Assembly (NCBI RefSeq): GCF_028767125.1
Contig: NZ_JAKCWP010000005.1
Span: 62,001 to 126,000, forward strand
From: Chelativorans sp. YIM 93263
GTDB taxonomy: Bacteria; Pseudomonadota; Alphaproteobacteria; Rhizobiales; Rhizobiaceae
Length of the DNA stretch: 64,000 nucleotides
Reading direction: 5' to 3'
Part shown: piece by piece, positions 7,164-52,127 of the stretch
How positions within the stretch are numbered: position 1 is the stretch's first letter
Layout of the letters: every line of letters begins with the position of its first letter
The notes under the pieces: generated by a model
Told to the model about the DNA's origin: nothing
Seen by the model: only the letters and a program-made list of their open reading frames with translations
Database searches by the model: none
Translations under genes and position numbers: made by a program

Positions 7164-7185
7164 GAAAGTCCTTTCAGGTCTGCAA

Positions 7186-8073
7186 CTACTTCACCGCGCC
7201 GGCTGTCAGGCCACGGATGTACGAGCGCTGGAGGATGAGAAAAAGGATCAGGCAGGGGATCATCATGATCGTGACGCCCGCCTGCACCGCACCCCAGTCG
7301 ACCGAGCCGTAGCGGCCGTAGCGCACGGCGGTCATGAGAACGGGCAGCGTGAACTTGTCCTGGTCGGTCAGAAGCACGAGCGCGGCGAGGAATTCGTTCC
7401 AGGCATTAAGAAAGGCGAAGAGGCCCACTGTCACGATGCCAGGAAGGACCAGCCGCCCCATGACCTGGACCAACATGCGGATGCCCTTGACTCCGTCGAT
7501 CCGGGCTGCCTCCTCGATCTCCTTCGGCACGGCGTCAAAGGCGTTCCGCATCATAAAAACCGAGAACGGAAGCTGCAGCGTGGTGTAGATGAGGATGAGA
7601 CCGAGCAGCGTGTTCTGCAGTCCCATCTTGGCCAGGAGAAGAAACAGCGGCGTCAGGATCGACTGAAAGGGAATCATGATCGTGGAGAGGATCAGAACGA
7701 AAACCAGCCCCTTGAGCGGAAAGTGGTAGCGCGAGAAGCTGTAGCCGGCAGGCACCGCGACGCCGATTGTCAGAAGCGCCGTGCCGACCGAGACGATGGC
7801 CGAATTCATGGTGTAGTGCAGAATCGATTGGCCGTAATTCTCGAGTCGTACGTAGCTGTCGAAGCTGAACCCCTCCGTGGGCCAAGGCGGCAGCGGTTGC
7901 AGCGCTTCCGAGGGCAGGCGAAACCCGGCGGCCACGACCCAGAAGATCGGCGCGAGGAAGAGGATCGCGACCAACGCGGCGGCAATGTGAAAAATCCAGC
8001 GATGGTACTTAATCCGGCCCCCTCCGCGTGGGGGCGCCGCTGCATCCTGCCCGACAATGGTCGTGGCCGTCAT
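7186..8073 (-). CDS. Sugar ABC transporter permease (MalG type)
   Basis: A 295-residue inner-membrane permease with about six membrane segments and the EAA loop EEAARIDG that docks on the ATPase. It starts at the ATG that overlaps the stop of the preceding permease by four bases, and it ends with RSYIRGLTAGAVK, typical of CUT1 MalG-like subunits. A longer in-frame extension upstream would run into the preceding gene and is not credible. Confidence 0.92.
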   Translation of the reverse strand: MTATTIVGQDAAAPPRGGGRIKYHRWIFHIAAALVAILFLAPIFWVVAAGFRLPSEALQPLPPWPTEGFSFDSYVRLENYGQSILHYTMNSAIVSVGTALLTIGVAVPAGYSFSRYHFPLKGLVFVLILSTIMIPFQSILTPLFLLLAKMGLQNTLLGLILIYTTLQLPFSVFMMRNAFDAVPKEIEEAARIDGVKGIRMLVQVMGRLVLPGIVTVGLFAFLNAWNEFLAALVLLTDQDKFTLPVLMTAVRYGRYGSVDWGAVQAGVTIMMIPCLILFLILQRSYIRGLTAGAVK

Positions 8074-8999
8074 GACTGATCTCCCTTGTCGCGGAGGAGC
8101 CAGAGCTGAACCACGCTGAGCACGAGCAGGATCACGAGCAACACCACCGATAATGCGGCGCCGTAACCGAGCCGGAACGACACGAAGCTTTCGTTGAAGA
8201 TGCGGTAGACGACGGTGACGGTCTGGTTCTGCGGTCCGCCGTTCAGAATAATATAGAACTGGTCGAATGCCAGCATCGACCCGGCGACTGCGAGGATCAG
8301 CGCCAGAGCGAAGGGCCTGCGGATGAGCGGCAGCGTAATCCAGCGGAAACGCTGACCCCAGCTCGCACCATCGATCCGCGCCGCCTCCTGATAATCGGTC
8401 GGGATCGCCTGCAGCCCGCTCATGATGATAACCATGTAGAAGCCGGCCATCTTCCATATGACCATGATCGTCACGGACCAGAAAGCCGGTGTGAAGGTCG
8501 CAAGGATGTTCACTCTGCCATCGGTCATTCCCAAATCCTGGGCGAGCGGTGAGAACAGGCCAGCGTCCACATTCGACAGCCACGCCCACAGAAGCGAGGC
8601 CGATGCAAAGCCCGTCACCACGGGCAGGAAATAGGCAGTGCGGTAGAAAGCGATGGCCCGGCCCTCACCCTGCACCATCAGAGCGAGCACGAAAGCCACC
8701 CCCAGCAGGCCAACCGTCGCGGCGATGGTGTATTGGATGGTAAAGACCAGGGCCGACCAGAAGCTCGTATCGCCCCAGAGCCGAGCGTAGTTGTCCAGCC
8801 CGATCCAGCGCGGCACGCCGATGAGCGGCCAGGCATGGAACGACATCCAGATCGACATGCCTAGCGGGATGAGGAAGAAGACGGCGACAAGCACGAGCGC
8901 CGGGGCTACGTAAAGAAGGCCCGTCCAGTCGCGGCGACGCCTCCTACGCGGGGGCGGTACCTCTAAAATGCTGTCTGAGATGTCCGTCTGTGCGGGCAT
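8070..8999 (-). CDS. Sugar ABC transporter permease (MalF type)
   Basis: A 309-residue permease, partner of the MalG-type subunit. A basic N-terminus (RRRRRR) precedes the first membrane segment, about six segments follow, and the EAA loop reads QEAARIDG. The start is the ATG preceded by GAGGGG. The upstream gap to the binding-protein gene is 82 bases and holds a strong hairpin, which may lower permease relative to binding-protein expression. Confidence 0.92.
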   Translation of the reverse strand: MPAQTDISDSILEVPPPRRRRRRDWTGLLYVAPALVLVAVFFLIPLGMSIWMSFHAWPLIGVPRWIGLDNYARLWGDTSFWSALVFTIQYTIAATVGLLGVAFVLALMVQGEGRAIAFYRTAYFLPVVTGFASASLLWAWLSNVDAGLFSPLAQDLGMTDGRVNILATFTPAFWSVTIMVIWKMAGFYMVIIMSGLQAIPTDYQEAARIDGASWGQRFRWITLPLIRRPFALALILAVAGSMLAFDQFYIILNGGPQNQTVTVVYRIFNESFVSFRLGYGAALSVVLLVILLVLSVVQLWLLRDKGDQS

Positions 9000-9026
9000 T
9001 CCGGGCCCCTCGGTCTGATATCGGGT

Positions 9027-9054
9027 GGCGCCGCGGGACAGACCCGCCGGCGCC
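9027..9054 (-). promoter_or_regulatory. Intercistronic hairpin between binding protein and permeases
   Basis: GGCGCC-GCGGG pairs with CCCGC-(C)-GGCGCC around a five-base loop, giving an 11-bp GC stem with one bulge and no T tract. In binding-protein operons such hairpins commonly protect the upstream message from 3' decay, so binding protein exceeds membrane subunits. That role is inferred here. Confidence 0.55.
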
Positions 9055-9081
9055 GTTCGCTCGCTGGGGAGAGAAAGGGAC

Positions 9082-10335
9082 TTAAGGCGCCGCGTCGATG
9101 ATCGACTGCATCTCGGCCTGGCCATCCTCGATCGCCTGCTGCACCTCCTCTTCGCTCTCGGCGAAGAAAGCGCGGTTCAGCGTTGTGATCCAAGGCCCGT
9201 TGCGCGAGTTGATCAGGTCGTTGAAGACGGTGGTGTAGGGCGTGCGCCCGCCCGCCATGGCCTTTGCCGCCGTCAGGTAGCGCTCATCGAGCTGTGATAG
9301 TGCCTCCTCTGCGACATCTCCGCGAACCGGAAGGGCGCCGTTATCCGCTAGGATGGTCTGGCCTTCCACCGAATATGCAAATTCGATGAAATCCTGGATC
9401 GCCGGGAGTTTGCTGTCGCCGGTACCGGCCGAGATGACTATGTTGTCGCCGCCTGCGAAGGAGGACCAGTCACCGTCCTTGCCCGGCAGAAAGGTCACGC
9501 CAAAGTCCAGATCGGGATACTGGTTGTTCAGCGCGCCGATGGAGAAGGACCCCGAGGGCGAGATGCCGATATTGCCATTGGCGAACGCGGCAAAGAAGTT
9601 CGAGCCGGTATCGGTCTGGGCGCCGCCGGGAACGAGACCGTCCATTACCATATCCCGGTAGAACTCGATCGCCTCTTTCACCTCGGGCGTGTCGAGGGTG
9701 GCGGTCTGGCCGTTATCCGCGAAAATGTCTCCGCCCGAGGCCCAGATCAATGGCGTGAAGGTGAAGATATTACAGCCACCGCAATTGCCCGAGAAATAGT
9801 ACCCGTAGGTCTCCTCGCCGAGCGCACCGACCGCCTCCGCCTGCGACCGCAACTCTTCCCAGGTGGTCGGCCCTTGCTCAGGGTCGAGACCGGCCTCTCT
9901 ATAGAGATCCTTATTCCAGACCAGGATCGAGGCGTCGGCCGAAAACGGTAGACCATAGATCCTGTCATCCACCGAGCCGACCGACAGGTGCGCCGGCGAG
10001 AGATGCTCGAAATAGGGCAGCGACTGGGCGAACTCGGTAAGATCTTTCAACTGGCCGGCTTCGGCGAACGCTGGCGTGTAGATCAGGTCAAGTGATAGAG
10101 CATCAGGAGCCGAGCCGCCGGCCGCGGCGATCGCGTATTTCTGCACCAGTTCGTTCACCGGCACGATCTGCAGTTTCGCGGTGTGCTCGCCTTGCGCATT
10201 GAACGCCTCGACAAGCTTGGGCATGAACTCGGACCCGTCCGAGCGCACCCAGATCGAGAATTCATCAGCCGAGGCGATTCCGGGAAGCGCAATAGCCGCA
10301 AGGGCGATCCCGCTGGTAATGGTCTTAAAGGTCAT
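9082..10335 (-). CDS. Sugar ABC transporter substrate-binding protein
   Basis: A 417-residue periplasmic binding protein of the CUT1 family. A signal peptide of about 23 residues ends ASA before DEFSIWV. The mature protein contains the usual WSSFAGGDNIVIS and ATLDTPEVKEAIEFYRDM segments. It is the first gene of the importer operon, below a promoter region with a LacI-type operator at 10373-10386. The neighbouring GH127 hydrolase suggests an arabinose-containing oligosaccharide as ligand. Confidence 0.92.
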   Translation of the reverse strand: MTFKTITSGIALAAIALPGIASADEFSIWVRSDGSEFMPKLVEAFNAQGEHTAKLQIVPVNELVQKYAIAAAGGSAPDALSLDLIYTPAFAEAGQLKDLTEFAQSLPYFEHLSPAHLSVGSVDDRIYGLPFSADASILVWNKDLYREAGLDPEQGPTTWEELRSQAEAVGALGEETYGYYFSGNCGGCNIFTFTPLIWASGGDIFADNGQTATLDTPEVKEAIEFYRDMVMDGLVPGGAQTDTGSNFFAAFANGNIGISPSGSFSIGALNNQYPDLDFGVTFLPGKDGDWSSFAGGDNIVISAGTGDSKLPAIQDFIEFAYSVEGQTILADNGALPVRGDVAEEALSQLDERYLTAAKAMAGGRTPYTTVFNDLINSRNGPWITTLNRAFFAESEEEVQQAIEDGQAEMQSIIDAAP

Positions 10336-20155: not shown

Positions 20156-20947
20156 GTGTCTGATTTGCAAGAGACGAACGGGGGACGGATTTTAGGGGCG
20201 GACGAACCTCATCCGCTGGAAACATTCAACAAAAACACGCAATCGGACTATTTCATCATCTGCGAGCATGCTGGTCGCAGAATCCCCGCGAGCCTCGGCA
20301 CGATGGGCCTTTCGGAAGAAGACAGAAAGCGCCACATTGCGTGGGACATCGGGGCCCGCTCGGTGGCAGTGGCGTTATCGCAGGCGCTGGAGGCACCGCT
20401 CTATATGCAGCGCTATTCTCGCCTGATCTGCGATTGCAACCGCCATCCGGATGTTCTGGACTTCGCGCCGGAAATAAGTGAGGCGACGCCGATCCCCGGC
20501 AACCAGGACTTATCGCAAGCCGATCGTAAGGCCAGGGCCGATGCGATCTTCTGGCCATTTCATGATGCGGTGGCGGAAGCCCTCGCTCTGCGGGAAAAGA
20601 ATGGCCTCACCACGAAAGTGGTCACCATTCATTCGTTCACGCCGTCCTATCTGGGGAAATCGCGCCCGTGGGAGATCGGCATTCTCTACAACAGAGACCT
20701 AGCGCTTGCGCCGGCGATTGCGGAATGGCTCAAGGCCGAGACCGACCTCTACGTCGGGGTAAACCAACCCTATGCGGTTAGCGACGACAGCGACTACAGC
20801 ATTCCCGTGCACGGTGAGAAACGAGGGCTCCCTTGTGTCGAGTTCGAGATTCGCAACGATCTCATCAGCAGCGATGAAGAAGCTGAAAAATGGGCAGCAT
20901 TAATTCGGCAAGCGCTTTTCGCCGTCGAGGCGACAGGAAGCGTGTGA
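20156..20947 (+). CDS. N-formylglutamate amidohydrolase-like protein
   Basis: A 263-residue zinc-type amidohydrolase of the FGase family. Visible family blocks are IICEHAGRRIPASLG near the N-terminus, the CDCNR segment, VVTIHSFTPSYLG and VEFEIRNDLI. FGase enzymes release formate and glutamate from N-formylglutamate in histidine breakdown, but relatives in amine or amide clusters act on other N-acylated amino acids. The GTG start is chosen for the GGAG element and because upstream codons lie in the divergent promoter. No histidine-catabolism genes are nearby, so the role is tied to the RpiR island. Confidence 0.82.
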   Translation: MSDLQETNGGRILGADEPHPLETFNKNTQSDYFIICEHAGRRIPASLGTMGLSEEDRKRHIAWDIGARSVAVALSQALEAPLYMQRYSRLICDCNRHPDVLDFAPEISEATPIPGNQDLSQADRKARADAIFWPFHDAVAEALALREKNGLTTKVVTIHSFTPSYLGKSRPWEIGILYNRDLALAPAIAEWLKAETDLYVGVNQPYAVSDDSDYSIPVHGEKRGLPCVEFEIRNDLISSDEEAEKWAALIRQALFAVEATGSV

Positions 20948-21393
20948 ACCGCCCAACTCTGCGCTGACCTAGCGTCTGCTTCCGGCAAATAACGGGGCAC
21001 TTCCGATCGTCCACAAGCCGGCAAGCAAGGGCTTTGCGCGCGGCCGCTCCGACCCTTCGGGGCTGCTCATGTCGCCGTATTGATCAATATTATTTCGCAG
21101 ATCGAAATATGTAACTTTCATGACTGTTGTACACAGGCCTTGAATCGTGGCTGCTTCTTCCTGTAATGATCCTCACCAGAGGGTGTTCAGAAACAGAACG
21201 CTTAGCAAGTCGAATTAATGTGGTGGCGGTATCTCTTCGGGATGATAACGTTTCGAGCCGCGTCGTGGGCTTTCCTGCTCACTGACCATCCGCCCATCAC
21301 GGATCTGAAATGTACCTTTGGCGCCTGCATTCGCCACAAGCCGAGTCATAGCGACCCGGAGGTTCGAACACGTCAACGAAGAGAGGAGACGTT
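20948..21393. other. Intergenic region before the betaine operon
   Basis: About 445 bases without a supported gene. It should hold the promoter of the betaine operon. A 12-bp palindrome TATTGATCAATA at 21078-21089 and nearby A/T-rich dyads (ATTTCG/CGAAAT) are possible regulator sites. I looked for SAM- or SAH-binding riboswitch folds here and saw none. The short frame 21218-21415 is not convincing. Confidence 0.4.
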
Positions 21394-23082
21394 ATGTCCG
21401 ATTCGAGTGCCATGAACGCGGAGCTTACGCAAACTGACCAAGTGTACAGCGGAGACCCGCTTCAGGATCGTGAGACGGACCAGTATCGCAACGAATACGT
21501 CAAGACCTTCGTGGAAAAGTGGGACGAACTCATCGACTGGAGTGCGCGGGCCGAAAGCGAGGGCCAGTTCTTCATCGACATCCTGCGGGCTAGGGGCAAG
21601 GAGACTGTCCTCGACGTAGCCTGCGGCACCGGCTTCCATTCCGTGCGGCTGACCCAAGCGGGCTTTAACGTAACGTCGGCAGACGGATCGGCGGCGATGC
21701 TCGCCAAGGCTTTCGAAAATGGTCGCCAGCGCAGCCTCATCCTGAAAACCGTGCAGGCCGATTGGCGTTGGCTGAACCGCGACATCCAGGGCAAGTACGA
21801 CGCGATCATTTGCCTTGGCAATTCCTTCACGCATCTGCACGACGAAGCCGATCGCCGCCGTGCGCTCGCTGAGTTTTACGCGGCGCTCAAGCATGACGGC
21901 GTCCTCATCCTTGATCAGCGCAACTACGACACGATGCTGGATGACGGTTTCAAGACGAAGCACAAATACTACTATTGCGGCGACCAGGTCTCGGCAGAGC
22001 CGGAGCATATCGACGATAGCCTGGTGCGCTTCAAGTACAGCTTCCCCGACGGTGCTGAGTTCACCCTCAACATGTGCCCGATCCGCAAGAACTACGTGCG
22101 CCGGTTGCTGTCGGAGGCCGGCTTTCAGCGGGTTCGCTCCTATGGCGACTTTCAGGACACCTATGCGGAGAACGATCCCGACTTCTTCATCCACGTCGCC
22201 GAGAAGTCCAAGCTTCATGCGCTCCGTTCGGACACCGACGCCCAGAAGGCCGAAACGACGGACATTAGGGACGTTACCGAGGATTATTACGACGGCGACG
22301 ACGCCGACACCTTCTACAGCACGGTCTGGGGCGGTGAGGACCTGCATGTCGGCATCTACGACAAGACCACCGACATCCGCGAAGCCAGCGCCGAGACCGT
22401 CGATCGCATGGCCGAAGCCCTTCCCGTGCTCGATTCCGATACGAAAATACTGGATATCGGCGCGGGTTATGGCGGATCCATGCGTCGGATCGTCAGCCGC
22501 ATTGGCTGCGAGGCGACGTGCCTGAACATCTCCGAGACCCAGAACGACACCAACCGGTACAAGAACCGCCTTGCCGGGCTTACCGATAAAATCCGGGTCG
22601 TTCACGGCGTGTTTGAAGAGATTCCGGAGCCGGCCTCCAGCTACGATGTGGTCTGGAGCCAGGATGCAATCCTGCACTCCGATCAGCGCGAGCGGGTTCT
22701 ATCGGAGGTCCGGCGCGTGCTGAAGCCGGGCGGTCATCTCATCTTCACAGATCCCATGCAGGCCGACGATGTTCCAGAAGGCGTGCTTCAGCCAGTTTAT
22801 GACCGTCTCCAACTCAACAGCCTCGGCTCCTTCCGCTTCTATCGCGAGGCCGCGACCGCCCTTGGCTTTGAGGTGGTGGCGCAGGAAGACCTCACGAAAC
22901 ACTTGCGCCAGCACTACGACCGCGTTCGTGAGGACCTGACCGCCAACTACGATCGCTTGGTCGAGCGCGGCGCCTCGACCGAGTATCTCGATAAAATGAC
23001 CGTGGGACTCGGAAACTGGGTCGATGCTGCGGACGCGGGGCATCTTGCCTGGGGCATCCAGCTGTTCCGCAAACCCGTGTGA
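21394..23082 (+). CDS. Fused glycine/sarcosine and sarcosine/dimethylglycine N-methyltransferase
   Basis: A 562-residue bifunctional enzyme that should convert glycine through sarcosine and dimethylglycine to glycine betaine, using three SAM. Residues 1-275 are a GSMT-type methyltransferase with SAM motif I LDVACGTGFHS at 73-83 and LGNSFTHL at 141-148. Residues about 290-562 are an SDMT-type domain with YYDGDDADTFYSTVWGGEDL and motif I ILDIGAGYG at 352-360. In many halophiles these are two separate proteins, and fusions are less common. The start ATG follows GAGAGGAG. Betaine is a compatible solute, so salt induction is expected, and the adjacent methyl-cycle genes fit the heavy SAM demand. 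Confidence 0.93.
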   Translation: MSDSSAMNAELTQTDQVYSGDPLQDRETDQYRNEYVKTFVEKWDELIDWSARAESEGQFFIDILRARGKETVLDVACGTGFHSVRLTQAGFNVTSADGSAAMLAKAFENGRQRSLILKTVQADWRWLNRDIQGKYDAIICLGNSFTHLHDEADRRRALAEFYAALKHDGVLILDQRNYDTMLDDGFKTKHKYYYCGDQVSAEPEHIDDSLVRFKYSFPDGAEFTLNMCPIRKNYVRRLLSEAGFQRVRSYGDFQDTYAENDPDFFIHVAEKSKLHALRSDTDAQKAETTDIRDVTEDYYDGDDADTFYSTVWGGEDLHVGIYDKTTDIREASAETVDRMAEALPVLDSDTKILDIGAGYGGSMRRIVSRIGCEATCLNISETQNDTNRYKNRLAGLTDKIRVVHGVFEEIPEPASSYDVVWSQDAILHSDQRERVLSEVRRVLKPGGHLIFTDPMQADDVPEGVLQPVYDRLQLNSLGSFRFYREAATALGFEVVAQEDLTKHLRQHYDRVREDLTANYDRLVERGASTEYLDKMTVGLGNWVDAADAGHLAWGIQLFRKPV

Positions 23083-23094
23083 GCCAAGAGTGAC

Positions 23095-23119
23095 GGGCGG
23101 CGGCGTCGCGCCACCGCCC
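23095..23119 (+). promoter_or_regulatory. Hairpin between the methyltransferase and metF
   Basis: GGGCGGCGGCG pairs with CGCCACCGCCC around TCG, an 11-bp stem with one mismatch, 12 bases after the stop codon. No T tract follows. It could stabilise the methyltransferase message or attenuate read-through into the methyl-cycle genes. Confidence 0.5.
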
Positions 23120-23166
23120 ATCCATCCTCTCTTCCAGGTCACATAGCAAGATACGGAGCAATCCGC

Positions 23167-24045
23167 ATGGGCGGGCCTTTCCCCGAAAACCCCATCACCG
23201 TCTCATTCGAGCTGTTCCCGCCGAAAACCGAGCGGGGCATCGACAATCTTGGCCGCACCGTCGCCCAGCTCGCCAGCGCCGGTCCGCAATACTTCTCGGT
23301 CACCTATGGCGCCGGCGGAACCACACGCGACCGCACGGCGCGCGTGGTCGACATGGTGCGCCGGCACACCGGCTTACCGGTTGCCCATCATCTGACCTGC
23401 GTCGGCGCAAGCCGCGCCGAGATCGACGCCCAAGCGCAACGCCTTTGGGAGAGCGGCGTGCGCAAGATCGTGGCATTGCGCGGGGACCTGCCCGAAGGCC
23501 AAACTCTGGCCCCTGACGGTTATCACGACGCGGCCGAACTGGTGGCGGGCCTGCGCCGGGTGGCCGATTTCGACATCGCGGTTGCCGCCTATCCGGAAGT
23601 GCATCCCGAAGCAGCCAGTGCGCAAAGCGACCTTGATCACCTCAAGCGCAAACTCGACGCGGGCGCATCGCGGGCAATCACACAGTATGTCTTTGACACC
23701 GACAAAATCCTGCGCTTTATCGATCGTGCCCGCGCCGCGGGCATCGAAGCGCCGATCGTGCCCGGTATTATGCCTGTCGCCAATTTCGCCAGTCTCAAGC
23801 GGTTCTCAGAAGGCTGCGGCGCCTCGATTCCCGATTGGATGGAGGCGATGTTCGGCGGGCTGGACGATGCGCCCGACATGCGTGCGATGGTGGCGGCGAG
23901 CCTCGCCAGTGTTCAGTGCCGCCATCTTGCGGCCGAGGGCGTTACCGACTTTCATATCTACACACTGAACAAGCCCGACGTGAGCCTGTCTGTCTGCCGC
24001 GCGTTGGGCGTTCCCGCGCGGATCAGCGCCGAGGAAGCCGCATGA
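23167..24045 (+). CDS. metF: 5,10-methylenetetrahydrofolate reductase
   Basis: A 292-residue FAD-dependent TIM-barrel reductase supplying 5-methyltetrahydrofolate. Family blocks seen are [10 protein letters not shown] with the catalytic glutamate, [29 protein letters not shown] and ITQYVFD. The start follows a GGAGC element. It sits 84 bases after the betaine methyltransferase and 13 bases before the homocysteine methyltransferase gene, so it should feed methyl groups directly to the split methionine synthase. Confidence 0.95.
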
Positions 24046-24058
24046 GAGGACGAAACCA

Positions 24059-25131
24059 ATGACAGCCGACATCGAAAGACACGCTGCCGAACGCATCCTG
24101 GTGCTCGATGGCGCGATGGGAACGATGATTCAGCAGGAGAGACCGGACGAAGCCGTTTATCGCGGCGAGCGCTTTAAGGATCACCCAACAGACGTCGGCG
24201 GGAACAACGAGCTTCTCAGCCTGACCGCGCCCGAAATGATCCGCGGTATCCATGCCGCTTTCCTCGACGCCGGCGCCGACATCCTCTGCACCAACACCTT
24301 CGGCGCCAACGCCATCAGTCAGGCCGACTATTCCATGCAGGATCTGGTGGCCGAGATGAACACCGAGAGCGTGCGGCTGGCGCGCGAGGCGGCCGATGCC
24401 GTGGCCACGCCCGACCGGCCGCGCTGGGTCGCCGGCGGGATCGGGCCCACCAACCAGACGGCCTCGATCAGCCCCGACGTGAACGATCCAGGCTTCCGCT
24501 CCGTATCCTTCGACGACCTGGCCCATGCCTATGGCGAGGCCGCGCGAGCGCTGATTGAGGCAGGCGCGGATCTGCTTCTGATCGAGACGATCTTCGACAC
24601 GCTGAACGCCAAGGCCGCGATCTATGCTGTCGAATCGCTGCGTGACCAAGGCGTCGCGGTGCCACCGCTGATGATCTCGGGCACGATCACCGACCGGTCG
24701 GGCCGCACGCTGACCGGGCAGACACCCGAGGCGTTCTGGGCGTCGATGAGCCATGCCCGTCCGTTCTCCGTGGGGCTTAACTGCGCGCTGGGCGCAGGCG
24801 AGATGCGCCAGCACATCCGCACGCTGTCGGAAGTGGCCGACACCCGCGTCAGCGCCTATCCCAATGCGGGCCTGCCCAACGAGATGGGGGGCTATGACGA
24901 GACCCCCGAAGAAACCGCAAGTCATCTGGGCGAATGGGCCGAGTCCGGGCTCGTCAACGTCGTCGGCGGCTGTTGCGGCACCACGCCCGAACATATCGCG
25001 GCCATCGCCGAGGCGGTGAAAAACAAGGCACCCCGCGCCGTTCCGCCGAAGATGAAGCGGATGCGGCTCAGCGGGCTTGAAATGTTCGAGGTATCGGGCG
25101 CCGAGGCCCAGCAACCGCATGAGGGTGCCGC

Positions 25132-25135
<4 letters not shown>
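24059..25135 (+). CDS. metH: Methionine synthase, homocysteine-binding half (split MetH)
   Basis: A 358-residue protein equivalent to the first module of cobalamin-dependent methionine synthase, about residues 1-353 of the E. coli enzyme. It activates homocysteine on zinc. The ligands are seen as Cys242 (GLNCALG) and Cys305-Cys306 ([10 protein letters not shown]). The start motif [13 protein letters not shown] is typical. The gene stops where the next begins (ATGA overlap), so both halves are translated together and should form a complex. The module is complete, not truncated, and the split is at a natural domain boundary. Confidence 0.93.
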
Positions 25136-27807
<2,672 letters not shown>

Positions 27808-27854
27808 CTGTGCGATCACAACCACCCCATTCCATGCAGAAAGAGAGGAACGAG

Positions 27855-29039
27855 ATGAGCGACAACACCTGGCTTTTCACCAGCGAATCCGTGTCGGAAG
27901 GGCATCCTGACAAGGTCTGCGACAGGATATCGGATTCCGTCCTGGACGCCTATCTGGCCGCCGATCCGAACTGCCGCGTCGCCTGCGAAACGCTGGCCAC
28001 CACCGACCATGTGACCATTGCCGGCGAAGTTCGCGGTCCGGACGAGGTGCGCCAGCATGTCGAGGAGATCGCACGCCAGGCGATCAAGGACATCGGTTAC
28101 GAACAGAAGGGCTTCTCCTGGAAAACCTGCGCCGTCAATAACCTGCTGCACGAGCAGTCGGCAGACATCGCCATGGGTGTGGATGAAGGCGACAAGGGCG
28201 AAGAAGGTGCCGGCGATCAGGGCATCATGTTCGGCTATGCCTGCAATGAGACCGAAGAATTGATGCCGGCCCCGATCCAGTTTTCACACCGCATCCTGCG
28301 GCTGATGGCTGAGGACCGGAAATCGGGCAGCCAGCCCAAGTTCGGTCCTGACGCCAAGAGCCAGGTGACGCTCGAGTACCGCAACGGCAAGCCCGTTGCG
28401 CTCGATACTGTCGTCGTCTCGACGCAGCATGCCGAGGGCATCAGCCAGGAAGAAGTGCGCGAACTCGTCAAGCCCTATATCGCTGCCGTCTTCCCAGAAG
28501 GCTGGTCAGTGCCCGACGACCGGCTGATCGTGAACCCGACCGGCAACTTCGTTATCGGCGGGCCAGACGGCGACGCGGGCCTCACCGGCCGCAAGATCAT
28601 CGTGGACACCTATGGCGGTGCGGCCCCCCATGGCGGCGGCGCCTTCTCGGGCAAGGATCCGACGAAGGTGGACCGTTCCGCCGCCTATGCCGCACGCTAT
28701 CTCGCCAAGAACGTCGTGGCGGCGGGCCTCGCCGACAAGTGTCAGATCCAGCTCGCCTATGCCATCGGCATGCCGGAGCCGGTCGCGCTCTATGTCGAGA
28801 CCCTCGGCACGGGACGCGTGGACAATAACAAGCTGTCGTCGGTCCTGCGCGAGATGGTTCGCCTGACCCCGCGCGGCATCCGCGAGCATCTGGATCTTCT
28901 CAAGCCCATCTACGCCCGCACTGCGGCCTACGGCCATTTCGGCCGCAAGCCGGATGCCGATGGCGGCTTTTCCTGGGAGAAGACGGACCTGGCCGACGAA
29001 CTGGCTCGTACCTTCGGCGCCACCCTGGCGGCCGAGTAA
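27855..29039 (+). CDS. metK: S-adenosylmethionine synthetase
   Basis: A 394-residue MetK that makes SAM from methionine and ATP. Diagnostic motifs are [12 protein letters not shown] near the N-terminus, [10 protein letters not shown], and the P-loop-like [19 protein letters not shown]. The ATG is chosen for the GAGGAAC site, and upstream in-frame codons lie in the 47-base gap after metH. In many bacteria metK is a single housekeeping gene elsewhere. Its position here points to SAM supply for betaine synthesis, and a second metK in the genome is possible. Confidence 0.96.
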
Positions 29040-29071
29040 CCGAAACGCCTCAATCGGAAAGGCAAACAGAC

Positions 29072-30484
29072 ATGAACAAACCTGAGAAATTCACCCCCGA
29101 GAATTGCGCCATCCGCGATATCGCGCTTGCCGATTACGGGCGTCGTGAGCTCGACATCGCGGAGACGGAGATGCCCGGGCTAATGGCGCTCCGTTCGGAA
29201 TACGGCGCATCGAAGCCGCTGAAGGGGGCGCGGATCGCCGGCTCCTTGCACATGACGATCCAGACGGCGGTTCTGATCGAGACGCTGGTGGAGCTTGGTG
29301 CCGAGGTCCGCTGGGCGTCGTGCAACATCTTCTCGACACAGGACCACGCAGCGGCGGCGATCGCGGCCGGAGGCACACCGGTCTTTGCGGTCAAGGGTGA
29401 GACGCTTGAGGAATACTGGGACTACTGCGACCGCATCTTCCAGTTCGAGGACGGTGCCAACATGATCCTCGACGACGGGGGCGACGCAACGCTCTATGTC
29501 CTGATCGGGGCTCGGGTCGAGGAAGGCGAGACCGACCTCATCGCCAACCCGACTTCGGAAGAGGAAGAGGCGCTCTTCGCGCAAATTCGCAAGCGGATGG
29601 CCGAGACACCCGGCTGGTTTGCAAAGCAGCGCCAGCAAATCCGCGGCGTCAGCGAAGAGACCACGACCGGCGTGCACCGGCTCTACAAGATGATGGAGCA
29701 GGGGCAACTGCCGTTCCCGGCGATCAACGTCAACGACAGCGTGACAAAATCGAAATTCGACAACAAGTACGGCTGCAAGGAAAGCCTCGTCGACGGGATC
29801 CGCCGGGCTACCGACACAATGATGGCCGGCAAGGTCGCGGTGGTCTGTGGCTATGGCGACGTCGGCAAAGGCTCGGCAGCCTCCCTCAGCGGCGCGGGGG
29901 CACGGGTGAAGGTCACCGAGGTCGATCCAATTTGTGCGTTGCAGGCGGCGATGGACGGCTTCGAAGTGGTCCGGCTCGAAGATGTGGTGAAGACCGCCGA
30001 TATCTTCATAACCACGACCGGCAACCGCGACGTCATCCGCGTCGAGCACGTGCGCGAGATGAAGGATATGGCAATCCTGGGCAACATCGGCCACTTTGAC
30101 AATGAGATACAAGTGGCCGCACTGAAGAACCACAAATGGACCAATATCAAGGACCAGGTGGACATGATCGAGATGCCCTCGGGCAATCGGATTGTCCTTC
30201 TGTCCGAGGGACGGCTTTTGAACCTGGGCAACGCCACCGGGCATCCGTCCTTCGTGATGTCGGCCTCGTTCACCAACCAGGTTCTGGCGCAGATGGAACT
30301 CTGGACCAAAGGCGATAGCTACGACAACAAGGTCTACGTGCTGCCCAAGCATCTCGACGAGAAAGTGGCGCGGCTGCATCTCGACCGGATCGGCGTCAAG
30401 CTCACCGAGCTCGCTCCCGAACAGGCCGAATATATCGGCGTTACCGTCGACGGTCCGTACAAGCCTGACCACTACCGGTATTAG
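29072..30484 (+). CDS. ahcY: S-adenosylhomocysteine hydrolase
   Basis: A 470-residue NAD-dependent AhcY that splits SAH into adenosine and homocysteine. It removes the inhibitory product of the betaine methyltransferase and returns homocysteine to MetH. Clear motifs are the substrate-binding [18 protein letters not shown], the NAD-binding [10 protein letters not shown] and the C-terminal PYKPDHYRY. It lies 32 bases after metK and is followed by a strong terminator, so it closes the methyl-cycle operon. Confidence 0.97.
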
Positions 30485-30555
30485 GACGGCATACGGCCTC
30501 GGCAAGCCGAACCATCTCGGTAGCTGGCTTGGAGAATATCCTGGGTGAATATGTG

Positions 30556-30588
30556 GGCCCGGCCGATCGCGACGTGATCGGCCGGGCC
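30556..30588 (+). terminator. Terminator after ahcY
   Basis: A perfect 13-bp GC-rich stem (GGCCCGGCCGATC / GATCGGCCGGGCC) around a seven-base loop, 71 bases past the ahcY stop and followed by ACTTTG. It separates the methyl-cycle operon from gpmI, which would need its own promoter in 30589-30746. Confidence 0.8.
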
Positions 30589-30746
30589 ACTTTGCGTCGG
30601 GCGACATACATCTTGATGGAATGTCGTCGCACCTGCCGACGGACTCGACAGCGAATTGTCCATGGTGGAGAGGTAGCGGCGAACCGCGCTTTGTCCTATT
30701 TCGACATGTGCCGCCGACGAATCTAGTTTCAGGAACGGATCTCACC

Positions 30747-32273
30747 ATGCCTCAACACACGCCGACCATGCTTCTGATCCTCGATGGCTGGGGATGGCGG
30801 GAAGAACCGGAGGCCAATGCGGTCCTCCAGGCAGCCACGCCTAACTTCGACCGACTCTACAATTCCCGCCCGCACGCCTTTCTAAAAACTTGCGGCCCCG
30901 CGGTCGGCCTGCCCGAGGGCCAGATGGGCAACTCCGAGGTGGGGCACCTCAACATCGGCGCCGGTCGCATCGTCACGCAGGAGCTGCCGCGCATCGACCG
31001 GGCAATCGACAGTGGCGATCTCGACCGCCGGCTCCAGGCGAGCGGCCTGCCCGCCCGGTTGAAGGAGACCGGCGGAGTGTGCCACATCATCGGCCTCGTC
31101 TCGCCGGGGGGCGTCCATTCGCATCAGGCACATGCGGCCGCACTCGCCCGCCTGCTCGCCGAAAGCGGCCTGCGTTCAAAGATTCACGCGTTTACCGACG
31201 GCCGTGATACGCCGCCGGACTCAGCCAAGGGGTATCTTCGCGAACTTGAAGCGGACCTGCCCGAGGAAGCGGAGATCGTGACGGTGAGCGGGCGCTATTT
31301 CGCCATGGACCGCGACAAGCGCTGGGATCGAGTAAAGGCCGCCTATGAGGCACTCGCGCATGGAAAGGGCGTGGCCACCGGCTCGGCGGGCGAGGCGGTC
31401 GACACCGCCCTCGCCGATGGCAAGACTGACGAGTTTGTGACGCCCGCGGTGATCGGTGACTATGCCGGAATGAAAGACGGGGACGCGCTCATCTGCTTCA
31501 ATTTCCGTTCCGACCGCGCCCGCGAGATTCTCGGTGCACTCGTCCTGCCCGACTTCGATGGGTTCGATCGCGGACGGCGCATCGATTTTTCCGCCGCAGT
31601 CGGCATGGTCTCATACAGTGCCGAGCTTGAGGCACACATGAAAACCCTGTTCGAGGCACAGGACCTGAAAGACGGACTGAGCGAGACGGTCTCACGCGCG
31701 GGCAAAACCCAGATCCATATGGCGGAGACTGAGAAGTACCCGCATGTTACCTATTTCCTGAACGGCGGCCGAGAGGAGCCGTTTTCGGGCGAAGATCGCG
31801 TCATGGTCCCCTCCCCCAAGGTAGCGACCTACGATCTCAAGCCGGCAATGTCGGCTCCAGAACTGACGGAGGAAATCCTGAAGGCGCTTGAGCGCGACGC
31901 CTACGACCTCTTTGTCATCAACTACGCCAACCCGGACATGGTGGGTCATACGGGCAGCCTGGATGCCGCGATTGAGGCCGTTGAGGCGGTCGACACGGCG
32001 CTGGGGAAGATCGTTGAGAAGGTGGAAAGCCGCGGTGGCTCCATGCTGGTGACGGCCGATCACGGCAATTGCGAGATGATGGTTGATCCCGAGACCGGCA
32101 CTCCGCACACGGCGCACACGCTAAACGACGTGCCGGTGATCCTCGTATCACCCCGGAAGGCAAGCCTCTCTGACGGCAAGCTAGCCGACCTCGCCCCCAG
32201 CCTCTTGGGACTGATGAACATCGAACAGCCAGAAGCGATGACTGGCTCCTCGCTCATCACCTTCAAGGATTGA
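30747..32273 (+). CDS. gpmI: 2,3-bisphosphoglycerate-independent phosphoglycerate mutase
   Basis: A 508-residue alkaline-phosphatase-superfamily enzyme interconverting 3- and 2-phosphoglycerate. Metal-binding blocks are LLILDGWG, GNSEVGHLNIGAGR with the phosphorylated serine, AFTDGRDTPP, and TADHGNCE. Length is normal. It lies after the ahcY terminator. Placement beside betaine genes is notable because 3-phosphoglycerate is the precursor of serine and glycine, the methylation substrate, but a functional link is inference. Confidence 0.95.
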   Translation: MPQHTPTMLLILDGWGWREEPEANAVLQAATPNFDRLYNSRPHAFLKTCGPAVGLPEGQMGNSEVGHLNIGAGRIVTQELPRIDRAIDSGDLDRRLQASGLPARLKETGGVCHIIGLVSPGGVHSHQAHAAALARLLAESGLRSKIHAFTDGRDTPPDSAKGYLRELEADLPEEAEIVTVSGRYFAMDRDKRWDRVKAAYEALAHGKGVATGSAGEAVDTALADGKTDEFVTPAVIGDYAGMKDGDALICFNFRSDRAREILGALVLPDFDGFDRGRRIDFSAAVGMVSYSAELEAHMKTLFEAQDLKDGLSETVSRAGKTQIHMAETEKYPHVTYFLNGGREEPFSGEDRVMVPSPKVATYDLKPAMSAPELTEEILKALERDAYDLFVINYANPDMVGHTGSLDAAIEAVEAVDTALGKIVEKVESRGGSMLVTADHGNCEMMVDPETGTPHTAHTLNDVPVILVSPRKASLSDGKLADLAPSLLGLMNIEQPEAMTGSSLITFKD

Positions 32274-43109: not shown

Positions 43110-44420
43110 TCAGGCTCTAAGCGCCGAGGCTCCGGCCGGCTGTGCGCGGTTGTCTTCTCCCGTCCAGTACATGAAGTGCGCGGGATGCTCGAGATCGAAG
43201 TGCCGCTGACCCATGAGCGCGTTGACGATCATGGCGCTGCGCCAAGCCATCAAACTCAGTTGCGGCTCGGCGATACCATGGCTGAATCGCCCGGCATTGA
43301 GCGCGAATATGCGGCAGTCCGCCGGCCCGTCCCATTGGATGGAGAAATCGGCCGCCAGTCGCGGGAGACCGTTTTCGTCCAGCGCCAGGCGCTCCCCGAG
43401 CGGTGAAAGGCATTCCGGAAGGGCGAAGCTGTAGCCGGTCGCCAGCACTAGCGCGTCGGCATCGAGCGTCTCTATGCCCCCGTCGAAGCCGTTGCGCATG
43501 ACGAAACGCATTTCGTCTCCCTCCTGCGCCAGATCGAGCACTTCGCGATGTGGCAGCAGGTTTGTCTGCGGACCTTCCACCGAGAGGTGCCTGAGTTCGT
43601 AGAGGCGGCGGTAGATGGCGCACAGTGTAGAAGTGGATATGCCGTCCCCGGCCAGTTTCTGGTGCGCCACCGTGGCGCGTCGGCGCGGCTCGGCCAAGGC
43701 GTGAAAGCGCTCGACATAGTTCGGCGTGAACAGTTCATTGGTGAATGGAGTGTCATCCAGCGGCTGGAAGTTCGGCCTTCGGCTGATCCACGAGATTTCT
43801 GTGCCAGCGGGCGCATTCAACAACAGATTCAGCACGATCTCGGCGCCGCTCTGCCCGCCGCCGACCACCATGATCCGGCGCCCCTCTATGTTGTCCAGAA
43901 TGTATGCGGCCTCGGAAGAATGGAAGGCGCGGTCGCCCATAACGGGTTCCGCCCAAGCAGGTATATGCGGCGCAAGGCCGACCCCGAGCGACAGGTTGCG
44001 GGCAAGCCGCTCCTCACTGTCAAAAGAAAGCTTGAAGAATTCGCCGTCAAAGCTCACTTCCCGCACCTCGCGGCCGAAATGCAGCGTCGGCAGGTTCTCT
44101 GCCACCCAAGCGAGATAGCGTGCGAACTCCCGGCGCGGCACGGCTTCGAAATCGGCGTTCAGAAACTCATAGAAGCGCTTATGAGCGACGAGATAGGCAA
44201 TGAAGGACCAGGGGCTGGTCGGATTCGTCGCCATCACCAGATCCTTCAGAAAGGACGTCTGCAGTTCCACACCCGGCAACATCATGCCCGGATGCCATGC
44301 GAATTGCGGTTTCCGGTCGAAGAAGCGAACCTCTGGCCCAGCGATTGAATCGAGCTGGGCGGCAAGGCTGAGATTGAAGGGGCCAATGCCGATTCCGGCA
44401 AGATCGAGGGATTCTGTCAT
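43110..44420 (-). CDS. iucD: L-lysine N6-monooxygenase-like enzyme (IucD/SidA family)
   Basis: A 436-residue flavin-dependent N-hydroxylase that makes the hydroxylamine needed for hydroxamate siderophores. FAD-binding GIGIGPFNLSLAAQL is at the N-terminus, WHPGMMLPGVELQ and NPTSPWSFIAYL follow, the NADPH site reads VVGGGQSGAEIV, and the C-terminal substrate segment is present. It overlaps the IucC-type gene by four bases. Fourth in an iucA-B-C-D gene order, which favours lysine as substrate, but a diamine substrate as in rhizobactin RhbE is possible. Confidence 0.85.
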   Translation of the reverse strand: MTESLDLAGIGIGPFNLSLAAQLDSIAGPEVRFFDRKPQFAWHPGMMLPGVELQTSFLKDLVMATNPTSPWSFIAYLVAHKRFYEFLNADFEAVPRREFARYLAWVAENLPTLHFGREVREVSFDGEFFKLSFDSEERLARNLSLGVGLAPHIPAWAEPVMGDRAFHSSEAAYILDNIEGRRIMVVGGGQSGAEIVLNLLLNAPAGTEISWISRRPNFQPLDDTPFTNELFTPNYVERFHALAEPRRRATVAHQKLAGDGISTSTLCAIYRRLYELRHLSVEGPQTNLLPHREVLDLAQEGDEMRFVMRNGFDGGIETLDADALVLATGYSFALPECLSPLGERLALDENGLPRLAADFSIQWDGPADCRIFALNAGRFSHGIAEPQLSLMAWRSAMIVNALMGQRHFDLEHPAHFMYWTGEDNRAQPAGASALRA

Positions 44421-46258
44421 AGGGATGCTCCTGACAGGAGGGATCGGTCGGTGGCTTGGTAGGAAAGCGCCGTTTCGGCGAGGTAGAGAGGATTGTCGAG
44501 CTCGGTGCCGAGGTCCGGCACAGGGCGCTCGCCTGCATCACCATAGCCAATGGCGAAGCGCACACGGTTGATGGCGATGCGCGGAACCTTCGGCTGGAAA
44601 AGGTCGAACAGCGCGAAGCGCTCGGCAAGTTCCGGATGCTCGGCCTGATAGCGGCGGAGGCGCTCGGCGAGCGTGGCGTAGAAAAGATGCTCGTCCAGCC
44701 CGTCATGGTCCGCGAGGGCTTCGGAAACAAAGCGCAGCACGCTTGCGAAATGACCGGTCTGCAGGTGTTGGAGAAGATGCGCCGGCGGGCGGCGCTTCAA
44801 GACCTTGCGCACGGACTCGGACAATGTTTCGAGCTCGGGAAAAGGCTGGTCCACGAGGTCGGCATCGCCCTGGAAATCCTTGATCGCCACGCCGACAGGC
44901 ACCGCTCTGTCGAGGATTACCGTCACATTCTGTCCGTGGGCAATGAAGCCGACGCCATAGCGGCACATGAAGTGGTAGAGAGGAATGACGACGGCACCGA
45001 ACAGCCGGTCGAGCCATTCGGCGTACTCAAGGCCGGAGCGGGCGATCAGTGCACTGGCAATCGGCCAGCCGGCGCCATCCCGCTGTGCAAGCGCCCCCAT
45101 CATCATGGCGCGATGGCCCGCCGGCAGGCAGGCATTCGGGCTCTCGCGCCAGATCGCACCCAGCATTTCGCAGAACTGATAGGGCGCATCCGGGATACGT
45201 TCGTAGTGGGGATGCGGATAGAACGCGCCCGCCACCTCCTGCAACACCTTGAGCGGGCGCAGAACCGGATCGCGCGCGGCAATCCCCGCAAGCCAACTGG
45301 AGAAGGCCGGGCCGATCTCCATGTATTTGCCGGGCACGCCACGCCAGGCGGATGTATTGAGGATGGTGAGAGGCAGCTTGACGTGAAGTGCATCCGGCCT
45401 GCGGGCATTCGCGAGCGTACGCAGTGACTGCTGCGCCACGAAAGGATCGCCGAAGGTGCCGAGCGGCACGAGCCGCCTCGCCGCCACTTCACCGGCAAAC
45501 TGTGCGGCAATGACACCTTGCCACTGCCAGGGATGGACGGGCATCAACAGATGCGTTTCCGTCGAAACACCCGCCTCGGCGCAGGCGGCCTTCAGCCGTT
45601 CCATTTCGCCAGCATCCAGAGCCGCGCTCAAGAGCGCCTCTTCGCCGGTATCGGGGGGAAGGAAGAGTCGGCATTGCTCGCGCGCGGCGGCCAGCCAGAA
45701 AAGCGTTATCGTGCCGCCGAATTCGGGCGCGTAACCGGCAAAGTCTTCAAGCCCCCAACCGAGACGCCCCTTGTTGGCGGACGCCTTCGGGTGACCGTTA
45801 AGAAACCGCTGCAGTTGTGTATCGGAGAGTGCGGCAAGATCGTCGGCGGCAAGATGCGCCCTAGCCGCAGTGATCCGCGCATCGGCCATGAGGGTGTTAT
45901 AGAGCTCCTTGGCATAGGTGCAGAAGGTCGGCGGCGATATGTCGAGGGTTTCGCGCGCATCCGCCAGAAAGGCGATTGCATCGTCCACGGGCTGTTCTTC
46001 GCCCGACACGTCCCGCACCAGGCTTTCGGGACTAACCGTCAACTGCCCCCAGATGCGGCGCACGGCTTCAAAGCGATACCTTGCGCCGGAGGCGAGGCGG
46101 AGTTCCCATCGCGTTTCGGCCGGGTCCAACGGCACGGGCCGAAACGCCTCCTCGTAAGCAAGCTCGGAGATCGCCTTAGCTGTCGCCGCGCGGTTGATCG
46201 CTGTCCAAGTCTCACGCTCCACCGCCTGTCCACCGGGATGGGGCCCAAGCATCATCAC
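44417..46258 (-). CDS. iucC: NRPS-independent siderophore synthetase, IucC type
   Basis: A 613-residue IucA/IucC ligase that condenses an N-hydroxy-N-acyl amine with a citrate carboxylate using ATP. Family motifs are GHPKASANKGRLG (ATP and citrate region), MPVHPWQW, and the C-terminal HGQNVTVIL and IKDFQGD. It starts at a GTG overlapping the stop of the acetyltransferase gene. Its ferric-iron-reductase-like C-terminal domain is complete. Third gene of the siderophore operon, so it probably performs the second condensation. Confidence 0.87.
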   Translation of the reverse strand: MMMLGPHPGGQAVERETWTAINRAATAKAISELAYEEAFRPVPLDPAETRWELRLASGARYRFEAVRRIWGQLTVSPESLVRDVSGEEQPVDDAIAFLADARETLDISPPTFCTYAKELYNTLMADARITAARAHLAADDLAALSDTQLQRFLNGHPKASANKGRLGWGLEDFAGYAPEFGGTITLFWLAAAREQCRLFLPPDTGEEALLSAALDAGEMERLKAACAEAGVSTETHLLMPVHPWQWQGVIAAQFAGEVAARRLVPLGTFGDPFVAQQSLRTLANARRPDALHVKLPLTILNTSAWRGVPGKYMEIGPAFSSWLAGIAARDPVLRPLKVLQEVAGAFYPHPHYERIPDAPYQFCEMLGAIWRESPNACLPAGHRAMMMGALAQRDGAGWPIASALIARSGLEYAEWLDRLFGAVVIPLYHFMCRYGVGFIAHGQNVTVILDRAVPVGVAIKDFQGDADLVDQPFPELETLSESVRKVLKRRPPAHLLQHLQTGHFASVLRFVSEALADHDGLDEHLFYATLAERLRRYQAEHPELAERFALFDLFQPKVPRIAINRVRFAIGYGDAGERPVPDLGTELDNPLYLAETALSYQATDRSLLSGASL

Positions 46259-47349: not shown

Positions 47350-47353
47350 CGGA

Positions 47354-49123: not shown

Positions 49124-49242
49124 CGGTACACCTCCGCAGCGGCGCAGCTCCTAAAAGGAATGAACACCACCCTTCCAAACGGATTGAGATATAAGATATT
49201 ATATATATTATATATACAATTTAGAAGGCTTGGAGCGCTACC
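49124..49242. promoter_or_regulatory. Divergent promoter of the siderophore cluster
   Basis: 119 bases between the divergent synthetase and exporter genes. An alternating A/T stretch (49190-49216) should hold the -10 elements. TTTAGAAGGCTTGGA at 49220-49234 resembles one arm of the Irr-type TTTAGAA-N3-TTCTAAA element but the other arm is poor. I found no TGA-N9-TCA RirA-type box here. Confidence 0.45.
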
Positions 49243-50430: not shown

Positions 50431-50459
50431 CGACCGGGAGACGTGTGCAAAATTCGTGT

Positions 50460-52117: not shown

Positions 52118-52127
52118 GGCCGCATCC

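What the first reader, a model, noticed from the sequence alone, without database searches (positions are those of the whole stretch)
21394..30484. Self-contained betaine-synthesis operon with its own methyl cycle
Seen: a fused GSMT-SDMT enzyme is followed on the same strand by metF, split metH, metK and ahcY, with short gaps, and closed by a terminator. Known: the three-step methylation of glycine uses three SAM and yields three SAH, and SAH inhibits methyltransferases. Inferred: the operon is a dedicated SAM regeneration module that lets the cell make betaine without draining housekeeping SAM. This is the most system-like locus in the window.
Basis: partly seen in the sequence, partly recalled or inferred. 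Interest (0 to 1): 0.85.

Follow-up and report, generated by a model that had tools for sequence, protein, structure and literature searches.

The report
Betaine operon with a SAM cycle
A bacterium carries, in one run of six genes, an enzyme predicted to make the salt-protectant betaine from glycine plus the enzymes that renew the methyl donor it uses; this arrangement is already described in related bacteria, and what is new here is mainly where it sits and what else the genome holds.

Summary
Window 21394-30484 encodes, on one strand with gaps of -4 to 84 bases, a fused GSMT-SDMT, metF, a two-gene metH, metK and ahcY. Seven of seven checked ligand residues of a solved GSMT are kept.

The arrangement is published: PMC7824335 lists "fusedMT-MTHFR-MS-MAT-SAHase" clusters in two Rhodobacteraceae with the same rationale. 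Its alphaproteobacterial branch held no Rhizobiales; this genome and two Chelativorans add some. The cycle genes look Rhodobacterales-like, probably by transfer, but direction is not settled.

"Dedicated" is partly supported. The genome has further metF, metK and ahcY copies and homologues of a three-part methionine synthase, but no second classical MetH. A second metK follows linkage to the betaine gene: 30 of 32 linked, 0 of 10 unlinked, 0 of 26 without it (linkage). In two relatives the operon metK and ahcY are the only ones found.

"Self-contained" is too strong: methyl groups come from folate, and the kinase that follows ahcY in 10 of 12 loci is absent. The closing hairpin has no U-run. 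Salt induction is untested.

The parts
21394..23082 (+). fused glycine/sarcosine N-methyltransferase - sarcosine/dimethylglycine N-methyltransferase (GSDMT), 562 aa
   Evidence: NF051855 464 bits over residues 16-272; NF041675 300 bits (below its cut-off of 550) over 293-560; 5h02, 5gwx and 2o57 are the best solved relatives; R52, L141, N143, H147, R176, Y215, M227 match MpGSMT R43, L132, N134, H138, R167, Y206, M218 (chain offset of 20 inferred)
23167..24045 (+). metF, methylenetetrahydrofolate reductase, 292 aa
   Evidence: PF02219 295 bits, TIGR00676 306 bits; 47.6% identical to the metF on contig C26
24059..25135 (+). metH part 1: homocysteine-binding module, 358 aa
   Evidence: PF02574 333 bits; matches positions 10-355 of PRK09490; GGCC and GLNCA motifs (zinc role recalled)
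25132..27807 (+). metH part 2: folate, B12 and reactivation modules, 891 aa
   Evidence: PF00809, PF02607, PF02310, PF02965; PRK09490 1504.6 bits; DVHDIG at 409; the only PF02965 match in the genome
27855..29039 (+). metK, S-adenosylmethionine synthetase, 394 aa (start ATG 27855 chosen; the ORF is open from a GTG at 27810)
   Evidence: TIGR01034 509 bits; 59.6% identical to the metK on contig C1
29072..30484 (+). ahcY, S-adenosylhomocysteine hydrolase, 470 aa
   Evidence: TIGR00936 606 bits; 78.6% identical to the ahcY on contig C1
30553..30590 (+). strong GC hairpin after ahcY, possible operon end, no U-run
   Evidence: z -4.6, 0 of 200 shuffles as stable; not listed by the terminator scan
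21381..21390 (+). GAGAGGAGAC, probable ribosome-binding stretch before the first gene
   Evidence: shared with 4 of 80 other upstream stretches (L013, L015, L018, L024); function inferred

Best explanation
An operon for making glycine betaine from glycine together with supply of its methyl donor. GSDMT methylates glycine three times with SAM. AhcY splits the inhibitory product SAH, MetF makes methyl-folate, two-part MetH turns homocysteine into methionine, and MetK makes SAM again. The cycle genes resemble those of Rhodobacterales and were probably gained by horizontal transfer. They supplement the resident metK, ahcY and metF, whereas MetH is the cell's only classical MetH. Shown here: gene content, second copies, recurrence in other genomes, closeness to Rhodobacterales genes. 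Inferred: enzyme activities, co-transcription, induction by salt, source and direction of transfer, and that the extra capacity serves betaine.
For: Families and kept residues. Same gene order in Rhodobacterales contigs and on a complete Roseinatronobacter plasmid. Second metK in 30 of 32 genomes where metK adjoins GSDMT, in 0 of 10 where it does not, in 0 of 26 without GSDMT. Trees place the window MetK, MetH and AhcY among Rhodobacterales rows; holding the window AhcY with all 22 housekeeping rows of its relatives is rejected (p-AU 0.013), and MetH shares the long stem of the Rhodobacterales type (p-AU 0.00016 against the alternative). SAH and betaine inhibit GSMT (PMC5201303, passages).
Against: No expression or biochemistry. 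SDMT half below its NCBIfam cut-off. No promoter-like site on the + strand and no known riboswitch upstream. MetH may be housekeeping. A tree with the window MetH just outside the Rhodobacterales clade is not rejected (p-AU 0.36), and holding the window MetK group with seven housekeeping MetK rows is not rejected at 5% (p-AU 0.062), so transfer and its direction are not proved. In C. salis (L013) the operon metF has lost its middle and no ahcY follows; in C. xinjiangense (L015) ahcY is interrupted by an IS630-type element, so not all six genes are needed as a unit. In G086 and G094 the operon metK and ahcY are the only ones found (completeness of those assemblies not told).
Confidence: 0.75

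Rival explanations
1. The operon is mainly the cell's housekeeping methionine cycle, to which the betaine gene is attached; it is expressed at all salinities and its MetH is needed for methionine itself.
For: Only one PF02965 MetH in the genome, in the operon; the operon MetH is the sole PF02965 match in 20 of 20 searched named genomes that carry it; in G086 and G094 the operon metK and ahcY are also the only ones found; metH is full length in both Chelativorans whose operon metF or ahcY is broken.
Against: Second metK and ahcY and a further metF exist here, as do homologues of all parts of a three-part methionine synthase (MtgC, MtgD, MtgE, RamA-like, DUF1638), which provides methionine synthesis in Phaeobacter (PMC5764234, passages), and a core-MetE-like protein.
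Confidence: 0.3
2. The first enzyme serves glycine or sarcosine methylation as a SAM buffer (like animal GNMT) rather than osmolyte synthesis.
For: GNMT is a distant relative.
Against: Best match is GSMT, 464 bits and over its cut-off, with a fused SDMT-like domain that a SAM buffer would not need; the MpGSMT residues that fit the extra methyl group (His138, Met218) are kept.
Confidence: 0.04
3. The betaine gene and the downstream cassette have separate histories: a resident GSDMT received a metF-metH-metK-ahcY cassette, or the GSDMT was swapped later.
For: Between the window and L015, GSDMT differs at 19.3% but metF at 7.2%; the ratio 2.68 lies outside the 0.20-0.94 of 120 Rhodobacterales pairs; for metH part 1 it is 2.86 (range 0.34-2.31) and for metK 5.06 (range 0.38-4.10). 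The GSDMT tree does not place the window with the Rhodobacterales rows.
Against: For metH part 2 the ratio 2.42 lies inside the range (0.31-3.27, mean 1.03), as do the window-L013 ratio for metK (3.75) and for metH part 2 (2.07). Holding the window GSDMT with the 25-row Rhodobacterales clade is not rejected (p-AU 0.15; 0.37 with its Hyphomicrobiales kin). The tree is a quick one and poorly resolved there.
Confidence: 0.42

Closest known systems
fusedMT-MTHFR-MS-MAT-SAHase betaine clusters of Roseivivax roseus DSM 23042 and Roseovarius nitratireducens (Imhoff et al. 2020, PMC7824335; abstract, passages and table excerpts seen)
   Same: Same genes in the same order, fused methyltransferase; for such clusters the paper proposes methyl supply and SAH removal. 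My locus L055 (Tranquillimonas rosea DSM 23042) bears the same strain number as its R. roseus.
   Different: Window lies outside Rhodobacterales (the paper's alphaproteobacterial GMT branch had 'no Rhizobiales'; it surveyed mainly phototrophs); no kinase gene after ahcY, unlike L055; methionine synthase resolved here as two genes.
Halorhodospira GMT-DMT-MAT-SAHase-MTHFR and Actinopolyspora fusedMT-MAT-o-MS-SAHase-MTHFR clusters (PMC7824335, passages)
   Same: Betaine genes joined to SAM-cycle genes.
   Different: Other order and lineage; in Halorhodospira methionine synthase lies elsewhere and the methyltransferases are separate.
Methanohalophilus sams-sahh-gsmt-sdmt(-adk) cluster (PMC3176816 and PMC5201303, passages)
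   Same: SAM synthetase and SAH hydrolase beside the betaine genes; a second SAH hydrolase copy; adenosine kinase, as in Rhodobacterales relatives of the window operon.
   Different: Archaeal, separate GSMT and SDMT, no metF or metH named in the passages seen.
Three-part methionine synthase / MtgBCDE of Phaeobacter and Ruegeria (PMC5764234 and PMC12478193; abstract of the second and passages of both)
   Same: B12-dependent methionine synthesis in separate genes; homologues of its parts are elsewhere in this genome.
   Different: The operon MetH is a classical MetH cut in two, with PF02965 reactivation domain.

Membership tests
Glycine-methylation betaine cluster with SAM-cycle genes (fusedMT-MTHFR-MS-MAT-SAHase) | Fused GSMT-SDMT protein | tested here: met
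   GSMT half over cut-off, SDMT half below the NF041675 cut-off but aligned end to end with 2o57
Glycine-methylation betaine cluster with SAM-cycle genes (fusedMT-MTHFR-MS-MAT-SAHase) | MTHFR, methionine synthase, MAT and SAHase directly downstream in that order | tested here: met
Glycine-methylation betaine cluster with SAM-cycle genes (fusedMT-MTHFR-MS-MAT-SAHase) | Ligand-binding residues of GSMT | tested here: met
   7 of 7 MpGSMT residues checked are kept
Glycine-methylation betaine cluster with SAM-cycle genes (fusedMT-MTHFR-MS-MAT-SAHase) | Makes betaine from glycine; rises with salt | not testable with these tools
   needs enzyme assay and RNA
Classical B12-dependent MetH | Homocysteine, folate, B12 and reactivation modules | tested here: met
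   PF02574, PF00809, PF02607, PF02310, PF02965 in two adjoining genes
Three-part (Mtg-type) methionine synthase | Separate MtgC, MtgD, MtgE, no PF02965 | tested here: not met
   operon MetH part 2 holds folate, B12 and PF02965 in one chain
Intrinsic terminator at operon end | GC hairpin followed by a U-run | tested here: not met
   hairpin yes, U-run no
Known methionine-related riboswitch upstream | Rfam match | tested here: not met
   none at gathering score in the window; at E up to 5 in 20940-21400 only two snoRNA-type chance matches

The most novel reading that the evidence does not exclude
The genome runs two B12 methyl-transfer systems in opposite directions: MtgB-MtgC-MtgD homologues can strip methyl groups from betaine, while the operon's own classical MetH feeds SAM for making betaine. 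The gained operon would keep synthesis apart from demethylation, and once in place it displaced the fused MetH usual in this family (30 of 34 MetH-bearing relatives among the 60 searched have an ORF of 1260 aa or more).
Probability: 0.2. Interest if true: 0.55.

Novelty: new member of a known kind. Interest (0 to 1): 0.36.

Why it matters
It extends a known betaine/SAM-cycle operon beyond Rhodobacterales, shows the same cassette on a plasmid, and gives a quantitative sign that an extra SAM synthetase goes with the betaine gene. It offers a tractable case for asking whether cells give a methyl-hungry osmolyte pathway its own SAM supply, and how betaine making and betaine demethylation coexist in one cell. 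For engineering, the cassette is a natural template for SAM-limited betaine production.

Tried and rejected
Riboswitch or known RNA upstream: none. Sigma-70-like promoter: the three listed in 20800-30800 are all on the - strand, no more than shuffles give. Shared upstream DNA: only short stretches shared with Chelativorans, Devosia and Aquamicrobium loci. Native metF-metH pair broken by loss of metH: rejected, since of 15 fetched metH regions of other genomes only G048's had a metF match. 'MetH is the cell's only methionine synthase': dropped after finding homologues of the three-part system. Shared flanks: eight flanking proteins were sought in the 80 loci; only a solute-binding protein had a match, in L091 (the gpmI query was out of frame and was repeated).

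Tests mended on re-reading. GSDMT: one search rejected a joint clade, but that group left out L067 and L072, which sit inside the Rhodobacterales clade; the fuller test does not reject, and I keep that. AhcY: (p 0.00016) used 15 of the 22 housekeeping rows; with all 22 p is 0.013. MetH: (p 0.00003) used a hand-picked group; one search gives p 0.00016 for a fuller group, but p 0.36 when L189 is put on that side too, i.e. a place just outside the Rhodobacterales-like clade is not rejected. MetK: window group outside the 18 Rhodobacterales rows p 0.0445; window group with seven housekeeping rows p 0.062. The groups were named after the trees were seen. All trees are 'quick' ones with SH-aLRT only, and in the MetH tree many genes stand twice (locus and search hit).

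Counts: metK matches include four weak partial ones (G069, G070, G072, G076), which do not change which genomes have at least two. G022 and G095 look like one genome reached twice (identical hit positions) and count once. In G002 the contig ends about 0.7 kb after GSDMT; I call it unlinked because its only metK match is of the low-scoring housekeeping type (101 bits). Not in the MetH count: L030 and L033 (not given) and L042 (not held).
Full report
WHAT IS THERE. Six genes lie on the + strand from 21394 to 30484. Profile searches give: fused glycine/sarcosine and sarcosine/dimethylglycine methyltransferase, MetF, the homocysteine module of MetH, the folate-B12-reactivation part of MetH, MetK and AhcY. 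Gaps are 84, 13, -4, 47 and 32 bases. The GSMT half scores 464 bits (cut-off 350); the SDMT half scores 300 bits against a model with cut-off 550, so its label rests on full-length similarity, including to 2o57. Seven residues that a structure paper names as contacts in MpGSMT (PMC5146677, passages) are identical (the offset between paper and chain numbering was inferred from the fit). Motifs usual for MetH, MetK, AhcY and MetF are present (the motifs and their roles are recalled). After ahcY comes a very stable hairpin without a U-run; it may end the transcript with help, or stabilise it.

SECOND COPIES IN THE GENOME. The genome is 4.25 Mb in 27 contigs, 99.99% complete. Its name is not given; its family group holds G022, whose hit positions are those of G095, the genome of L067 (Fulvimarina pelagi), so I take it as Hyphomicrobiales. 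metK: two copies, the other (C1) 59.6% identical. ahcY: two, 78.6% identical. metF: one further full match on C26, 47.6% identical, plus two more distant family members. MetH: the operon holds the only PF02965 match. PF01717 finds no full-length MetE, only a 372-residue core-MetE-like protein: 43 bits to PF01717, 447 bits to PRK06520, over that model's cut-off of 313. Whether such proteins make methionine in aerobic marine bacteria is called questionable in PMC12478193 (passage). [quoted passage not shown] These are an MtgE/Bmt-like protein (PRK07534, 544 bits), an MtgC-like B12 protein, an MtgB-like MTTB protein (796 bits) and DUF1638 on C12. On C21 are an MtgD-like protein (PRK07535, 396 bits), a second MetF and a RamA/RACo-like activator. 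Orthology with the tested proteins was not examined. So each step of the operon's cycle has another candidate in the genome, although there is no second classical MetH.

HOW THE KIND IS SPREAD. Of these 80: 23 have both metH parts downstream (19 with metF, one of these a remnant; 4 without), 15 have metK or metK-ahcY only, 5 have metK upstream, 2 have metF before the contig ends, and 35 show none of these genes (5 of those 35 with under 1.5 kb to look at, 6 more with under 8 kb). In the window's family, a full-length GSDMT of 70% identity or more is in 4 of 61 genomes, the window's included. PF02965 MetH is in 35 of 61, the window's included; 30 of the other 34 have an ORF of 1260 aa or more, the window's has 894. 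The split form alone is no sign of transfer: G010, G048 and G019 of the same family also have short ORFs (893-946), and G010's sequence groups with the family.

LINK OF SECOND METK TO THE BETAINE GENE. Of 69 genomes searched, I count 32 with metK beside GSDMT (the window's, 20 with metH in the operon, 11 with metK or metK-ahcY): 30 have at least two metK; G086 and G094 have one, the operon's. Ten have GSDMT apart from metK: all have one metK. Twenty-six family genomes without a full-length GSDMT: 25 have one, one has none. G022 and G095 are taken as the same genome. This is the best quantitative support for a supply role. It does not prove that the copy is used only for betaine. ahcY counts are blurred by contigs that end inside the gene in several Rhodobacterales, which suggests near-identical copies there; G086, G087 and G094 show one ahcY, the operon's. 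How complete the named genomes are was not told.

METH. In 39 GSDMT genomes searched, 38 have exactly one PF02965 match and one has none; in two of the 38 (G098, G099) the match is weak, 155-158 bits. In 20 of 20 searched genomes whose locus carries metH, that match is the operon gene. Thus the operon does not duplicate MetH; it holds it.

ORIGIN. Window MetK falls with two Chelativorans and a Devosia (starred), inside a starred set of Rhodobacterales operon MetKs. Window MetH part 2 falls with Chelativorans inside a starred 36-row Rhodobacterales set (many genes standing twice) that also includes two MetH not in betaine operons; G019, a family member without GSDMT, sits just outside it. Window operon AhcY falls inside a starred set of Rhodobacterales rows, whereas the other AhcY of the genome falls with its relatives. 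Tests: AhcY with all 22 housekeeping rows is rejected (p 0.013), and MetH without the long Rhodobacterales-type stem is rejected (p 0.00016), but MetH just outside the Rhodobacterales clade is not (p 0.36). MetK outside the Rhodobacterales rows is barely rejected (p 0.0445), and MetK with seven housekeeping rows is not (p 0.062). So the operon genes are Rhodobacterales-like and transfer is likely, but source and direction are open. Whether GSDMT came along is also open: its divergence from the Chelativorans gene is out of line with metF, metH part 1 and metK but not with metH part 2, and the tree test does not reject descent with the Rhodobacterales clade. A complete 137-kb Roseinatronobacter plasmid carries GSDMT-metF-metH1-metH2-metK-ahcY and then an annotated adenosine kinase (the plasmid's gene table omits metH, found by tblastn). 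It is typed non-mobilizable, and it is the only one of 72,556 plasmid records with a GSDMT match at E 1e-60.

A SEVENTH GENE. In 10 of 12 loci with a complete ahcY (L040, L046, L050, L055, L056, L060, L062 cut by the contig end, L066, L075, L265; not L074, not the window), a PfkB-family kinase, annotated as adenosine kinase on the plasmid, follows on the same strand. NCBIfam gives it no name above cut-off, so the substrate is inferred. It would remove adenosine and pull SAH cleavage forward. An adk in the Methanohalophilus betaine cluster is mentioned in PMC5201303. The window lacks it at this place; the rest of the genome was not searched for it.

DECAY IN RELATIVES. In C. salis (L013) metF keeps only residues 1-18 and 184-282 and no ahcY match follows; in C. 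xinjiangense (L015) ahcY is interrupted after residue 113 by an IS630-type element, and only residues 112-122 were found beyond it. GSDMT, both metH parts and metK match over their full length in both. Each genome keeps a full ahcY elsewhere.

WHAT IT WORKS LIKE. Best reading: betaine synthesis from glycine with co-encoded renewal of SAM and removal of SAH (confidence 0.75). Enzyme functions follow from families; one transcript, salt control and exclusive use are inferred. 'Self-contained' is not right: methyl groups enter through folate (from serine or glycine, established knowledge), B12 is required, and adenosine removal is left to other genes.

WHAT IS KNOWN. PMC7824335 (Imhoff et al. 2020; abstract, passages and table excerpts) lists this gene order in two Rhodobacteraceae and related versions in others. 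It states, of the Halorhodospira clusters, that the enzymes are expected to supply methyl groups and remove SAH. Methanohalophilus has a shorter version (PMC3176816, passages), and metK2 of Halorhodospira was used in an engineered operon (PMC8092242, passages). I found no description of the operon in Hyphomicrobiales in searches of the open library, which lacks most subscription papers; the listings were read, not every paper in them. Hence: new member of a known kind.

Noticed in passing
L096:8887-13826 and L098:8195-12788 (window's own genome, contigs C21 and C12): Homologues of a B12-dependent betaine demethylase / three-part methionine synthase (MtgB-, MtgC-, MtgD-, MtgE-like, second MetF, RamA/RACo-like, DUF1638) in the same genome that seems to make betaine; how a futile cycle is avoided is unknown.
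   Followed up: partly
L265:21090-22082; also after ahcY in L040, L046, L050, L055, L056, L060, L062, L066, L075, and after metK in L018: A PfkB-family (adenosine kinase-like) gene extends the betaine/SAM operon in relatives but not in the window.
   Followed up: partly
L029, L030, L032, L059, L064, contig ends inside ahcY: Several Rhodobacterales assemblies break inside the operon ahcY, as expected if two near-identical ahcY copies exist (recent duplication or gene conversion).
   Followed up: no
L260 (G019 of the window's family): A split metH 75-78% identical to the operon's stands without a metF match nearby, in a genome without GSDMT, on a 150-kb contig.
   Followed up: no
window 43110-54335: Siderophore-type gene set: two IucA/IucC-type synthetases, lysine/ornithine monooxygenase, acetyltransferase, two MFS transporters, TonB receptor.
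   Followed up: no
window 5235-7163: Glycoside hydrolase family 127 (beta-L-arabinofuranosidase) between parts of an ABC transporter at 4147-10335.
   Followed up: no
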